A stretch of 64,000 nucleotides of DNA from Echinicola rosea (GTDB lineage Bacteria > Bacteroidota > Bacteroidia > Cytophagales > Cyclobacteriaceae): positions 4,492,501-4,556,500 of the forward strand of contig NZ_CP040106.1 in the NCBI RefSeq assembly GCF_005281475.1, read 5' to 3'. This document shows positions 3,023 through 32,602 of the stretch, one piece after another. Each line of letters begins with the position of its first letter. The stretch's first letter is position 1. The notes under the pieces were generated by a model that worked only from the letters and a program-made list of their open reading frames with translations, ran no database searches and was not told the origin of the DNA. The translations under genes and the position numbers were made by a program.

Positions 3023-3180
3023 TTTATCCCTTCTGCTTTCGATACCTTTCGAACAGTAAACCAATTCCATAACGCTTTTGAGGACGTCGCTTCACTCAAA
3101 CGCATCAAAACCCTAATTCTCTATCGATTTTATAGGGTTTTTAAAAGGGAATTATTTTTAAAAAACTCTTTTTCGAATAC

Positions 3181-3211
3181 TTGCAAGTTTAAAAATTGGA
3201 TTGTTACTTTG
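3181..3211 (+). promoter_or_regulatory. Putative promoter of the metX leader
   Basis: A TTG at 3181-3183 lies 21 nt before TACTTTG at 3205-3211. This approximates the Bacteroidota -33/-7 pair (TTG and TAnnTTTG), with one base missing in the -7 box. It would start transcription about 20 nt before the riboswitch. Confidence 0.4.
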
Positions 3212-3239
3212 TGCTATCCTTTACTTTTTAAAAGTACAA

Positions 3240-3351
3240 GGATTTATACAGAAGAGGTAAGAGACAGGCTCGCAGACCCTCTGGCAACCTGGAAAATCCA
3301 AGGTGCCAATTCCTGCCGAATGTGAATATCCGCATTTGGAAATATAAATTC
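3240..3351 (+). promoter_or_regulatory. SAM-I (S-box) riboswitch aptamer upstream of metX-hom
   Basis: All four aptamer helices can be drawn by hand. P1 pairs GGATTTATA (3240-3248) with TATAAATTC (3343-3351). P2 pairs AGAGG (3253-3257) with CCTCT (3278-3282) around GAGACAGGCTCGCAGA. P3 is CCTGG / CCAAGG after the conserved GGCAACC. P4 pairs CCGAATG with CATTTGG (about 3316-3339). The invariant GCAACC and AAGGTGCCAATTCC segments are present. SAM-I riboswitches turn methionine-synthesis genes off when S-adenosylmethionine is abundant, which fits the genes downstream. Confidence 0.93.
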
Positions 3352-3370
3352 TTAAACAATGAATTTTATA
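3343..3370 (+). promoter_or_regulatory. Alternative hairpin of the riboswitch expression platform
   Basis: The 3' strand of P1 (TATAAATTC, 3343-3351) can instead pair with GAATTTTATA (3361-3370) across a 9-nt loop. This competes directly with P1. The downstream strand includes the last base of the ATG at 3359-3361. Pairing is visible in the sequence; switching is inferred. Confidence 0.55.
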
Positions 3371-3475
3371 AAAAGGATACACACAGCAATACAACTTCAC
3401 ACACAAATCATCATAGCATTTCTTTTTACCGAAAGGGACAGTTTCATGCATCGTCGAATGTGCATGTGCAACTAA
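3359..3475 (+). CDS. Possible 38-codon leader ORF ending in Met/Cys codons
   Basis: An ATG inside the riboswitch platform opens a 38-codon frame before metX. Its last ten codons read MHRRMCMCN then stop, giving three Met and two Cys codons close together. The same stretch can fold: CATGCA at 3445-3450 pairs with TGCATG at 3461-3466. This resembles an amino-acid-responsive leader peptide acting with the SAM riboswitch. No Shine-Dalgarno sequence is evident, and the codon cluster may be chance, so this is a hypothesis. Confidence 0.3.
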   Translation: MNFIKRIHTAIQLHTQIIIAFLFTERDSFMHRRMCMCN

Positions 3476-3574
3476 GCCCCCTACTTTGGTCCATACCGGA
3501 CAACCCGATTCTTTTATATCCATTATTTGATGATCCCAGTTGACTGAAGTCAACGCTAAATTAAGAGTAAGAAA

Positions 3575-4630
3575 ATGAATCTAACATCACCGTATCTGAT
3601 TACCGATATGACACAGGAAACATTCCACTGTGAAGAGGAATTAAATCTCGAATCAGGTGAATCACTACCAGGATTTGAGATCAGCTATACTACTCAAGGG
3701 CATTTGACACCAAAAAAAGACAATGTCATCTGGGTATTGCATGCACTGACCGGGGATGCCAATGTCCACGAATGGTGGAGTGGTCTGGTGGGTGAAGACA
3801 AGTTTTTTGATCCTACCAAGTACTTCATCGTCTGTGCCAACCTGCTTGGATCATGTTATGGATCCACACAGCCCCTTAGCGAAAACCCCAAAACAGGAAA
3901 ACCATACTATTATGACTTCCCAAACCTGTCCACACGCGACATGGCCAAGGCTTTTGACCGTCTTCGTCAGCATTTGGGAATTCAGCAGATCGACACCATC
4001 ATCGGTGGATCACTCGGAGGCCAGGTAGCGTTGGAATGGTCATACAACTTGCAAGAACAGGTAAAGAAGACCGTAATAGTAGCCTCCAACTCAAAGACCT
4101 CCCCTTGGACGATCGGCTTCAATGAAGCCCAAAGGATGGCCATCGAATCCGACAGCACTTGGGGACAAAACTCTCCAGATGCAGGCAAAAAAGGCCTCGA
4201 AGCAGCCCGTGCCATAGGCATGCTCAGCTACCGGCACCAAGATATTTTCCATGCCAGCCAAGCCGAAACGGAAGAAAAAACGGACCATTTCCGCGTAAGC
4301 TCCTACCTGCGCTACCAAGGCCAAAAACTCTCCAACCGCTTTAATGCCCTCTCCTACTGGGTGCTTACCAAAGCCATGGATAGCCATGACCTGGGCAGAG
4401 GCAGAGGAGGTACCGCAAAGGCCCTGTCACAGATCAAGGCAAAAGTCCTCTCCATCGGGATCAACACAGACTTGCTCTTCACCAAAGAAGAGTCGCAGTT
4501 TATCAGCAAAAATGTCCCCAATGGCACGTATCGTGAGATTTCTTCCATCTATGGACATGATGCGTTTTTGGTAGAAAACGAACAATTAAATTATATTCTA
4601 ACTTCTTTTTACTTGGAAAACAATGACTAA
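3575..4630 (+). CDS. metX: Homoserine O-acetyltransferase
   Basis: This 351-residue cytoplasmic alpha/beta-hydrolase transfers an acyl group from acyl-CoA to homoserine, the first step of methionine synthesis in this branch. The family block NLLGSCYGSTQP is at ~89-100. The nucleophile elbow GGSLGGQ places Ser near 146, and the catalytic Asp and His lie in NTDLLF and YGHDAFLVE near the C-terminus. The length fits MetX. A long leader with a SAM-I riboswitch precedes it, and a small hairpin GTTGAC-TGAA-GTCAAC (3539-3554) sits just before the start codon. It overlaps hom by 8 nt, so translation is probably coupled. Confidence 0.95.
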   Translation: MNLTSPYLITDMTQETFHCEEELNLESGESLPGFEISYTTQGHLTPKKDNVIWVLHALTGDANVHEWWSGLVGEDKFFDPTKYFIVCANLLGSCYGSTQPLSENPKTGKPYYYDFPNLSTRDMAKAFDRLRQHLGIQQIDTIIGGSLGGQVALEWSYNLQEQVKKTVIVASNSKTSPWTIGFNEAQRMAIESDSTWGQNSPDAGKKGLEAARAIGMLSYRHQDIFHASQAETEEKTDHFRVSSYLRYQGQKLSNRFNALSYWVLTKAMDSHDLGRGRGGTAKALSQIKAKVLSIGINTDLLFTKEESQFISKNVPNGTYREISSIYGHDAFLVENEQLNYILTSFYLENND

Positions 4631-5849
4631 CCACATTGGTTTGTTTGGCTTTGGAGTGGTCGGCCAAGGATATTATGAAATCGCTAAAAACGACCGCCTC
4701 GCGCTTTTACCTAAAACAATTGTCGTACAAAATAAAAATAAAGAACGAGATCATTCACTGCAGTTTTCTTTTGACCCAAAAGACATTTTGGATGCCCCTT
4801 GTGACATTGGAATAGAGCTGATCTCAGATCCTGTGCAGGCCTATGATTATGTCAGCAGCCTTTTAAAATCAGGAAAAAAAATCATTTCCGCAAACAAAAA
4901 AATGCTTTCAGCCCACTTGCCTGAGCTACTGGAACTGGAAAAAATTTATGGTGGAAGCCTACTTTATGAAGCCTCCGCTGCAGCAGGTATCCCGATCATT
5001 ACCTGCTTGGACTGTCATTTTAGGGGCGATCACATCAGCCAGCTTCAAGGCATCCTCAATGGTTCTTCCAATTACATTCTTTCCCGTTTATTTCAAGATG
5101 ACCTTAGCTTACAGGAAGCCGTAAAACTGGCCCAAGAAAATGGATTTGCGGAAGCGGATCCCACTTTGGACATCAATGGCAGCGATGTCAGCAGTAAACT
5201 TACCATTCTTAGCCTTCATGCCTTTGGAAAGTACATCCCCGAGGGAGAAATCCTGACCCTTGGCGTGCAACATGTCCATGCAGCAGATGTGGCACTGGCC
5301 AAATCCCTAGGGTTAAAGATCAAGCTGATCGCCACCGCAAAACAAACCCCGCAAGGCCTAAACATGTATATTCTCCCCGCTTTGGTAGGCGAAAGTGATC
5401 CGCTTTTCCTGGTAGAAAACGAATACAATGCGGCAAAAATAACTTCCCAAAACCTAGGTGAACAATTCTTCCAAGGAAAAGGTGCTGGGAGCTTACCGAC
5501 TGGTGCTTCCGTTTATGCGGATTTGACCAAGGTGGAAAAGGGCTATGCCTACAGCTATGATAAGCTTAATGGCCAGAAAATCAATCCCCAAAGTCCACAC
5601 CCCACCTCCTTGGACGCAATGATCAGTGCAGACAGCCTAGAAGCCCTGAAACCGCTTGTCGCCAGCGCCCCAATCCATCAAGCCAACGGTAAATATTGGG
5701 CCGTCAGTGCTATTTCTACGGCTGAGCTGATCAATCAGATCCCGGCCATAGAAGCCAATAAGGTCTCCGTCATAGCACTCAACAATGTCCTCAGCAAAGA
5801 AGATGCACTTGCCCAGATCCAAAGACAGGAAACCGTAAGCCTAAAGTAG
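4623..5849 (+). CDS. hom: Homoserine dehydrogenase
   Basis: The 408-residue protein reduces aspartate semialdehyde to homoserine, the substrate of MetX. It has an N-terminal Rossmann motif GLFGFGVVGQGYYE (~6-19), a KKIISANKKMLS segment, and the catalytic-domain core YEASAAAGIPII and LNGSSNYIL followed by EADPTLDINGSDVSSKL. There is no aspartokinase domain, so it is the monofunctional form, and no clear ACT domain is seen at the C-terminus. It starts inside the end of metX and should share its riboswitch control, which supplies homoserine specifically for methionine. Confidence 0.93.
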   Translation: MTNHIGLFGFGVVGQGYYEIAKNDRLALLPKTIVVQNKNKERDHSLQFSFDPKDILDAPCDIGIELISDPVQAYDYVSSLLKSGKKIISANKKMLSAHLPELLELEKIYGGSLLYEASAAAGIPIITCLDCHFRGDHISQLQGILNGSSNYILSRLFQDDLSLQEAVKLAQENGFAEADPTLDINGSDVSSKLTILSLHAFGKYIPEGEILTLGVQHVHAADVALAKSLGLKIKLIATAKQTPQGLNMYILPALVGESDPLFLVENEYNAAKITSQNLGEQFFQGKGAGSLPTGASVYADLTKVEKGYAYSYDKLNGQKINPQSPHPTSLDAMISADSLEALKPLVASAPIHQANGKYWAVSAISTAELINQIPAIEANKVSVIALNNVLSKEDALAQIQRQETVSLK

Positions 5850-14049: not shown

Positions 14050-14097
14050 CCCTATCAAGCAGAAGCCACTCAGGCATAGGTATGGCTATAATAAGAA

Positions 14098-14171
14098 GAG
14101 CCGTATGATGGGAGACTATCACGTACGGTTCTGTGAGAGGCTCGGGGTGAAATTCCCCTTGCCTACTCGAC
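14098..14171 (+). mobile_element. Group II intron 3' end (domains V and VI), remnant 1
   Basis: Positions 14098-14131 form a canonical 34-nt domain V: GAGCCGTA pairs with TACGGTTC, TGATGG with CTATCA around a GAGA tetraloop, with a two-base CG bulge and the AGC triad. Domain VI (GGGG / CCCC hairpin) and the end CCTACTCGAC follow. No intron-encoded protein or 5' half is present on this side. Confidence 0.8.
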
Positions 14172-32429: not shown

Positions 32430-32501
32430 TAGTCCGTACGGGAATCGAACCCGTGTTTCATCCGTGAAAGGGATGCGTCCTAACCCCTAGACGAACGGAC
32501 C
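32430..32501 (-). tRNA. tRNA-Glu (anticodon TTC), second in transcript
   Basis: The 72-nt cloverleaf has acceptor GGTCCGT / ACGGACT (G1-U72), D arm GTCTAGGGGTTAGGAC, anticodon arm CATCCCTTTCACGGATG with TTC, and T arm ACGGGTTCGAATCCCGT. CCA is not encoded. It is identical to the copy at 32531 and 29 nt downstream of it. Confidence 0.95.
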
Positions 32502-32530: not shown

Positions 32531-32602
32531 TAGTCCGTACGGGAATCGAACCCGTGTTTCATCCGTGAAAGGGATGCGTCCTAACCCCTAGACGAACGGA
32601 CC
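32531..32602 (-). tRNA. tRNA-Glu (anticodon TTC), first in transcript
   Basis: Same 72-nt sequence as the copy at 32430. It is the promoter-proximal gene; a consensus promoter lies ~40 nt upstream on this strand. Confidence 0.95.

What the first reader, a model, noticed from the sequence alone, without database searches (positions are those of the whole stretch)
3240..3475. SAM-I riboswitch overlapping a Met/Cys-ending leader ORF before metX-hom
All four SAM-I helices pair. The 3' strand of P1 can instead pair with 3361-3370, which includes the end of the start codon of a 38-codon ORF (3359-3475). That ORF closes with MHRRMCMCN, three Met and two Cys codons, in a stretch that can fold into a CATGCA/TGCATG hairpin. 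So SAM binding could free the ORF start, and charged tRNA-Met or tRNA-Cys supply could then act on the leader. This would be dual metabolite and aminoacyl-tRNA sensing in one leader.
Basis: partly seen in the sequence, partly recalled or inferred. Interest (0 to 1): 0.7.

Follow-up and report, generated by a model that had tools for sequence, protein, structure and literature searches.

The report
SAM riboswitch controlling cysteine-rich leader peptide
In front of a methionine-synthesis gene this bacterium carries an RNA switch for the metabolite SAM that runs straight into a tiny gene ending in cysteine and methionine codons, an arrangement shared by many related bacteria that probably lets one RNA leader respond to SAM and to cysteine supply together.

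Summary
Window 3241-3350 is a SAM-I aptamer (Rfam SAM, 77.2 bits). Eight bases after its closing helix P1 starts a 38-codon leader ORF (uORF) ending RRMCMCN, before metX. The arrangement recurs: of 97 SAM-I loci with an AU-type P1, 92 have an ATG uORF within -3 to +13 nt of the aptamer end and 61 have two or more Cys in the last ten codons; of 122 loci with a GATRA-type P1, 1 does. In 106 sequence clusters Cys is 28% of the last ten residues, 1.4% of the body, 4.7% out of frame. Cys-tailed named examples fall in 21 of 28 genera or MAG groups.

Targets are mostly metY, metZ-like, metX and some sulfite reductase genes; metH leaders mostly lack a uORF. P1's 3' strand supplies the adenines at -12 to -14 of the uORF start, positions that favour initiation in this phylum. 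Best model: SAM-closed P1 silences the uORF; when it is translated, its Cys/Met tail senses tRNA charging. The step to gene output is unproven (Rho is a candidate). Verdict: a conserved two-input leader, new variant of known kinds.

The parts
3241..3350 (+). SAM-I (S-box) riboswitch aptamer with an AU-type P1
   Evidence: Rfam RF00162, 77.2 bits, full length
3241..3248 (+). 5' strand of P1 (GAUUUAUA)
   Evidence: pairs with 3343-3350 in the Rfam alignment and in the MFE fold
3343..3350 (+). 3' strand of P1 (UAUAAAUU), which is also the A-rich element at -9 to -16 of the uORF start
   Evidence: position; A at -12/-13/-14 in 84/76/68% of 177 leaders
3351..3358 (+). 8-nt linker between P1 and the uORF start (CUUAAACA; position -3 is A)
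   Evidence: the gap is 6-10 nt in 170 of 177 uORF leaders; A at -3 in 68%
3359..3475 (+). leader ORF (uORF) of 38 codons plus stop
   Evidence: metX leaders of the genus with the same start and a Met/Cys end: L044, L047, L048, L050
3458..3472 (+). Met-Cys-Met-Cys-Asn tail, the presumed stall codons (ATG TGC ATG TGC AAC)
   Evidence: same in L047, longer by one in-frame Met-Cys in L048 and L050
3489..3501 (+). small hairpin 1 after the uORF stop (GUCC/GGAC)
   Evidence: by eye also in L047, L048, L050 with U-A, U-G and C-G at one pair (alignment); few sequences
3539..3554 (+). small hairpin 2 (GUUGAC-UGAA-GUCAAC), 20 nt before metX
   Evidence: by eye also in L047, L048, L050; L044 can form a different hairpin there
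3575..4630 (+). metX-like homoserine O-acyltransferase, the presumed regulated gene
   Evidence: NCBIfam PRK00175 336.7 bits, cut-off 331
4623..5849 (+). homoserine dehydrogenase, overlapping metX by 8 bases, probably the same operon
   Evidence: NCBIfam PRK06349 279.4 bits, cut-off 205; coordinates

Best explanation
This is a two-input leader for sulfur amino-acid genes. A SAM-I aptamer uses as its output not the main gene but a short leader ORF that starts 6-10 nt behind its closing helix. Step 1 (anatomy shown, effect inferred): the 3' strand of P1 is also the A-rich initiation element of the leader ORF. When SAM closes P1 that element is hidden and the ORF is translated poorly. Step 2 (sequence shown, sensing inferred): when SAM is low the ORF is translated. 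Ribosomes then meet Cys and Met codons just before the stop and slow or stall there if Cys-tRNA or Met-tRNA is uncharged. Step 3 (inferred, least certain): a ribosome held near the stop keeps the following leader RNA open or covered. It prevents small hairpins around the stop and/or Rho loading on the G-poor stretch before the main gene, so the gene is expressed. An untranslated leader (SAM high), or a ribosome that finishes and leaves (Cys and Met plentiful), lets expression fall. Expression is therefore highest when both SAM and charged Cys/Met-tRNA are low.
For: Aptamer. Start linkage: 92 of 97 AU-P1 loci have an ATG uORF of 8 or more codons within -3..+13 nt, against 20 of 122 GATRA-P1 loci. 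Tail: in 106 clusters Cys is 28% of the last ten residues against 1.4% body and 4.7% out of frame (p 7e-16 and 3e-15); Met 7.7% against 2.5% and 1.0%. Codon-level: 70 of 72 leaders with three or more tail Cys use both TGT and TGC. Targets: metY, metZ-like, metX, sulfite reductase; 32 of 34 metH leaders of the family-level set have no uORF. Initiation element: A at -3 in 68%, -12 in 84%, -13 in 76%, -14 in 68% of 177 leaders, in line with the F. johnsoniae rules (A at -3, -6, -12, -13; low structure from -20 to +20; PMC6847099, abstract and passages). Forcing P1 lowers the unpaired probability of -17..-9 from 0.58 to 0.11 in 66 clusters, partly by construction. Structure around the uORF stop is stronger than in shuffles in Cys-tailed leaders (mean z -1.11, n 86), less so in Cys-poor ones (-0.35, n 58). 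Two helices downstream of the Psychroflexus uORFs show paired changes.
Against: No expression, probing or ribosome-profiling data: translation and both sensing steps are inferred. In this window the SAM-free fold also pairs much of the element (-17..-9 unpaired only 0.21), so the direction of the SAM effect is less clear here than in the class. The uORF body shows no purifying selection (7 synonymous, 20 non-synonymous codon differences in three comparisons), and indels among 80 close pairs are not mostly multiples of three (47 of 182): expected for leader peptides, but no proof of translation. 69 of 177 uORFs have fewer than two Cys in the last ten codons, among them 18 of 22 named Algoriphagus loci and most Echinicola metZ-like leaders. 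The uORF body of Cys-tailed leaders is also somewhat more structured than shuffles (z -0.60), so the signal around the stop is not unique to it. No general downstream switch was found: terminator-like sites in 18 of 144 leaders, none in the window; Rho untested. Physiology might prefer induction by either signal rather than by both.
Confidence: 0.55

Rival explanations
1. One reading: without SAM the 3' strand of P1 pairs with the first codons and hides the uORF start; SAM frees it; then Cys/Met-tRNA supply decides. The gene would be off only when SAM and charged tRNA are both high.
For: The pairing exists in the window, and the SAM-free ensemble there keeps -17..-9 mostly paired. In an unclustered duplex test of 177 leaders the mean z was -0.52 and 17% lay below -2, the window's leader at -2.4 and Belliella-type leaders at -2.7 to -4.3. 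Across 66 clusters +4..+20 is slightly more open with P1 closed (0.61 against 0.53, 44 of 66). Induction by either signal is attractive physiologically.
Against: As a hairpin in the window it is weak and chance-like (-2.1 kcal/mol, 33 of 200 shuffles as good). After clustering, anti-P1 complementarity reaches p<0.05 in 2 of 66 clusters (3%), against 8% for the reversed-P1 control and 5% for a downstream control. By eye the other uORF leaders of this genome (L003, L004) lack it.
Confidence: 0.2
2. The Cys-rich end acts as a nascent peptide (binding metal, persulfide or the exit tunnel), not through tRNA charging.
For: Some tails are Cys runs of 7-8 residues (L155, L164, L179).
Against: Tails vary between Cys and Met and in length (MCMCN, MRMRMPMSC, MICMLMPKTS), and Met, which is not a thiol, is enriched too. 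The targets make Cys and Met.
Confidence: 0.12
3. Classical transcription attenuation with an intrinsic terminator: Cys codons in arm 1 compete for arm 2 of a terminator.
For: In two Mucilaginibacter-type leaders (L143, L309) Cys codons can pair with a segment that can also pair further downstream (read by eye).
Against: A hairpin followed by a U-run occurs in 18 of 144 leaders and nowhere in window 3100-3620. Tail-to-downstream duplexes reach p<0.05 in 10% of 86 Cys-tailed clusters.
Confidence: 0.08
4. Chance: an unremarkable open frame behind an ordinary translational SAM-I riboswitch.
For: The body of the ORF is not conserved as protein.
Against: Narrow start spacing (6-10 nt in 170 of 177) and Cys/Met tails in unrelated clusters; both Cys codons used.
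Confidence: 0.03

Closest known systems
SAM-I (S-box) riboswitches, Rfam RF00162
   Same: Aptamer sequence and P1-P4; methionine genes
   Different: The element next to P1 is a leader ORF start, not a terminator or the RBS of the main gene
SAM-I of Xanthomonas campestris sensing uncharged initiator tRNA (PMC7270179; abstract and section list read)
   Same: One SAM-I leader that reads SAM and a methionine-tRNA signal
   Different: There the expression platform binds tRNA directly and frees an SD; here an ORF with Cys/Met codons follows the aptamer and no SD-like sequence is seen before it
mgtA leader with MgtL (Mg2+ and proline codons; PMC6460261 seen in the search listing only; otherwise recalled)
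   Same: Two inputs in one leader through a short ORF
   Different: Different ligand, different codons, no SAM-I aptamer
Polycysteine uORFs of mycobacteria (three papers listed hold both words; only the listing was seen; mechanism recalled)
   Same: Cys-codon uORF before sulfur genes (recalled)
   Different: No riboswitch; actinobacteria (recalled)
Rho-linked uORFs such as E. coli mdtU (PMC7815308, passages read) and tnaC (recalled)
   Same: Similar geometry: mdtU has 34 codons and a stop 106 nt before the gene
   Different: Not reported as riboswitch-gated in the passages read; Rho is not shown for the present leaders

Membership tests
SAM-I riboswitch (RF00162) | Covariance-model score above the curated gathering score, full-length P1-P4 | tested here: met
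   77.2 bits against 44.4, model 1-108
SAM-I riboswitch (RF00162) | SAM binding | not testable with these tools
   needs in-line probing
Leader-peptide attenuator | Short ORF upstream with codons for the end product near its stop | tested here: met
   3359-3475, tail MCMCN; class statistics
Leader-peptide attenuator | Intrinsic terminator with U-run as output | tested here: not met
   none in window 3100-3620; 18 of 144 leaders
Leader-peptide attenuator | ORF is translated and ribosomes stall on the tail | not testable with these tools
   needs ribosome profiling or fusions
Rho-dependent uORF attenuation (tnaC/mdtU-like) | C-rich, G-poor stretch after the uORF and Rho sensitivity | tested here: inconclusive
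   stop-to-gene stretch G 12%, C 23% in 144 clusters, without a genome-wide control; Rho itself not tested
X. campestris type SAM-I with tRNA-fMet-binding platform | SD/anti-SD platform that binds uncharged tRNA | tested here: inconclusive
   only an 8-nt linker without an SD-like sequence lies between P1 and the uORF; tRNA binding not tested
T-box leader | T-box covariance model match | tested here: not met
   no T-box hit at the gathering threshold in the 64-kb window

The most novel reading that the evidence does not exclude
A Bacteroidota regulator class in which a riboswitch aptamer gates the translation of an amino-acid leader peptide. SAM decides whether the leader is read, and Cys/Met-tRNA charging decides what the reading ribosome does, so a metabolite switch and a ribosome-based tRNA sensor act in series on sulfur assimilation genes.
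Probability: 0.6. Interest if true: 0.85.

Novelty: new variant of a known kind. Interest (0 to 1): 0.75.

Why it matters
Riboswitches and leader peptides are usually treated as separate solutions. Here one leader appears to combine them; Cys-tailed cases fall in 21 named genera or MAG groups, with members of Cytophagales, Sphingobacteriales (Mucilaginibacter) and Flavobacteriales (Psychroflexus) (order placement recalled). It would explain one way in which bacteria without Shine-Dalgarno sequences build translational riboswitches: P1 doubles as the A-rich initiation element. It would also show how SAM and cysteine signals are combined on direct-sulfhydrylation genes while methionine synthase keeps a plain SAM switch. 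Tails and start spacing make clear mutants easy to design in harmless laboratory strains.

Tried and rejected
Rejected: chance ORF; a class-wide anti-P1 switch (it stays possible in some clades); conserved CATGCA/TGCATG hairpin; intrinsic terminator; the internal ATG of MHRRMCMCN as the start, since L048 has ATA and L047 TTG there.

Led nowhere: consensus folds of Echinicola, Belliella, Mucilaginibacter and Pontibacter leaders gave little; codon-position bias in the uORF is weak (421 third-position against 328 first- and 332 second-position changes in 80 pairs).

Literature: searches (open-licence PMC only; two searches showed 20 of 46 and 15 of 97 papers); no listed title or abstract start describes the arrangement. 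Passages found by search words in PMC6429828, PMC9723704, PMC7366714, PMC2258182, PMC3766115 and PMC12452182 do not describe it either; PMC9723704 mentions leader-peptide attenuation at amino-acid operons of F. psychrophilum in general. Supplements were not read.

Own errors: loci on the minus strand from the genome search are not reoriented; read those rows backwards. Corrected from then on; counts come and later, or (pattern loci, orientation taken from the match). The label CGS means a metZ-like (O-succinylhomoserine sulfhydrylase family) protein.

Selection: all 44 matches of the genus search were read. Of the family search I read the 30 loci it returned plus 67 chosen by hand, favouring matches near 110 nt, so the share of AU-P1 is not representative. 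Of the phylum search I used 29 of its 30 returned loci and 60 further listed matches, chosen to cover other families; its top hits mostly lack a Cys uORF. Locus L269 was dropped (cut contig). One search counts are not corrected for relatedness; one search is. Of 187 deduplicated AU-P1 leaders, 10 without a uORF were left out of tail counts. The 'two Cys in the last ten' rule misses L226 and L254, whose CCCCC lies further from the stop.

Full report
What is there. The window lies in a 6.06-Mb genome held as G000. Named records with near-identical uORF leaders are Echinicola. Window 3241-3350 is a full SAM-I aptamer (77.2 bits). P1 is 3241-3248 with 3343-3350. An 8-nt linker follows, then ATG 3359 and 38 codons ending HRRMCMCN, stop at 3473-3475. 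metX follows at 3575 and homoserine dehydrogenase at 4623. The own genome has four SAM-I aptamers. Three have an AU-type P1 and a uORF 7-8 nt behind the aptamer: metX; a metZ-like gene (uORF without Cys, MTNLPFHRFFLIHYRISWVYAMFD); and a 163-residue protein without Pfam match, behind MRQTMRMRNLLKEPKRCCC. The fourth, metH, has none.

Is it more than chance. I read 229 SAM-I loci from the same genus, family and phylum, correctly oriented (selection described under Tried and rejected). 97 have a P1 whose 3' strand reads TATRRR (AU type). Of these, 92 have an ATG uORF of eight or more codons starting between -3 and +13 nt of the aptamer end, and 61 have two or more Cys in the last ten codons. Of 122 loci with a GATRA-type P1, 102 have no such uORF, 19 have one without a Cys tail and 1 has one with it; 10 loci have another P1. 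After removal of duplicates, 177 AU-P1 uORF leaders remain (92 aptamer-defined, 85 pattern-defined); the start lies 6-10 nt behind P1 in 170 of them (pattern-defined ones were required to lie at 4-11). Among the 80 shown with names, 46 do, from 21 of 28 genera or MAG groups: for example Pontibacter TCCCCCCC, Cesiribacter ICCCCCCCC, Mucilaginibacter ICMCCCCC, Psychroflexus PMSCCCCMCA, Belliella CPMCR. The same pattern in a class-level draw hit 6 of 295 genomes (4 of 156 genera; four of the six in the window's own family), the reversed control none, so exact matches are uncommon outside the family. After clustering to remove relatives (106 clusters) Cys makes up 28.2% of the last ten residues, 1.4% of the body and 4.7% of the same stretch read out of frame; Met 7.7%, 2.5% and 1.0%; 70 of 106 have two or more Cys. 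With aptamer-defined loci alone (59 clusters) Cys is 30.3, 1.4 and 5.5%. 70 of 72 leaders with three or more tail Cys use both Cys codons.

What it controls. In the family-level set of 140 loci, a uORF stands before metY (51 of 52), metX (7 of 10), metZ-like genes (17 of 23) and unassigned genes (15 of 19). 32 of 34 metH and both cystathionine-synthase/lyase-like leaders have none. In 18 of 20 genomes with both kinds, metH lacks a uORF and a metY, metX or metZ-like leader has one. Sulfite reductase genes follow Cys-tailed leaders too (L159 by Pfam; L092 and L179 by eye), as the next ORF of at least 90 codons. Three leaders before PAPS reductase (L185 by Pfam, L245 and L260 by eye) fit less well: start 4 nt behind P1 and 0, 1 and 2 Cys in the tail. 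The Echinicola metZ-like leaders mostly lack Cys tails, but four metZ-like leaders have them, so that split is not strict. In the whole set 29 of 35 GATRA-P1 metY loci have no uORF and none has a Cys tail: the arrangement belongs to a subset of Bacteroidota.

How the SAM part could act. Bacteroidetes lack Shine-Dalgarno sequences; in F. johnsoniae, A at -3, -6, -12 and -13 and low structure from -20 to +20 go with initiation (PMC6847099, abstract and passages). In 177 uORF leaders A stands at -3 in 68%, -6 in 45%, -12 in 84%, -13 in 76% and -14 in 68%; -12 to -14 lie in the 3' strand of P1, which is itself conserved. P1 closure covers this element: unpaired probability of -17..-9 falls from 0.58 to 0.11 in 66 clusters when P1 is forced, partly true by construction; -8..+3 does not change, +4..+20 rises slightly. 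As a hairpin in the window it is -2.1 kcal/mol, matched by 33 of 200 shuffles. In the window it keeps the element partly paired without SAM (unpaired 0.21), so the direction in this particular leader stays open.

How the tail could act. The tail lies directly before the stop. Structure around the stop is stronger than in shuffles in Cys-tailed leaders (mean z -1.11 in 86 clusters, 27% below -2) and less in Cys-poor ones (-0.35 in 58, 9%); the uORF body shows a weaker trend of the same kind (-0.60 and -0.16). In Psychroflexus a 12-pair hairpin encloses the Cys codons and the stop (11 of 12 pairs never vary, so it says little). Two helices further down have changes on both sides at four pairs. 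Cells with such changes reach the observed number in 1 of 500 shuffles and the covariation score in 3, but pairs with such changes in 59 and further pair types in 492 of 500: modest support from seven sequences. In Echinicola a small hairpin after the stop shows U-A, U-G and C-G at one pair (by eye). No U-run terminator is seen in the window and few elsewhere (18 of 144). The stretch from stop to gene is G-poor (12% G, 23% C) with a median length of 75.5 nt, a geometry like that of the Rho-linked E. coli mdtU uORF (34 codons, stop 106 nt before the gene; PMC7815308, passages). Rho involvement is inference.

Against. The uORF body is not conserved as protein; third-position excess is small and indels are not mostly in frame. 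69 of 177 uORFs have fewer than two Cys in the last ten codons, among them 18 of 22 named Algoriphagus loci, although the start is kept. This fits a SAM-gated uORF as the basic part and the Cys tail as a part that can be lost, but it also means the tail is not needed for the arrangement. Echinicola metY leaders (five genomes) carry Met-containing tails with at most one Cys in the last ten.

Known or new. Each half is known. The nearest published case found is the X. campestris SAM-I whose platform binds uncharged initiator tRNA (PMC7270179, abstract); its abstract names no leader ORF. Eight literature searches, limited to open-licence papers and partly to capped lists, showed no description of a riboswitch followed by a Cys/Met leader ORF. 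I rate it a new variant of known kinds.

Noticed in passing
window 14096-14171 (+): Group II intron domain hit, 67 bits.
   Followed up: no
window 32430-32501 and 32531-32602 (-): Two tRNA genes with the same score and identical sequence, 29 bases apart.
   Followed up: no
L291 and L303: SAM-I with another P1 type (GTTAAG) followed 103 and 132 nt later by Met/Cys-rich ORFs (MEKTNEKNLNHSRYFMHCRFFRMCMPVNI; MKKPDEQKLKISTVPNCKTIRMCMELCCSS): perhaps the same pairing in a second layout.
   Followed up: partly
L351:528-1016 (+): 163-residue protein without Pfam match behind a SAM-I/uORF leader, with relatives behind such leaders in all 11 genomes of the genus searched; possibly sulfur-related.
   Followed up: partly
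Algoriphagus loci among L141-L220: uORF start behind AU-P1 kept but the Cys tail missing in 18 of 22, with very variable ORF length.
   Followed up: partly
Echinicola genus loci: Of 11 genomes the uORF leader stands before metX in six and before metY in five; in the window's genome the metY-type gene lies elsewhere, suggesting operon rearrangement.
   Followed up: partly
L226, L254: Leaders before sulfite-reductase-like genes whose CCCCC run lies about 10-15 codons before the stop rather than at the end.
   Followed up: no
L143, L309: Mucilaginibacter-type leaders where Cys codons could pair with AACAC-like segments that also pair further downstream, resembling a competing-hairpin attenuator (by eye).
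   Followed up: partly
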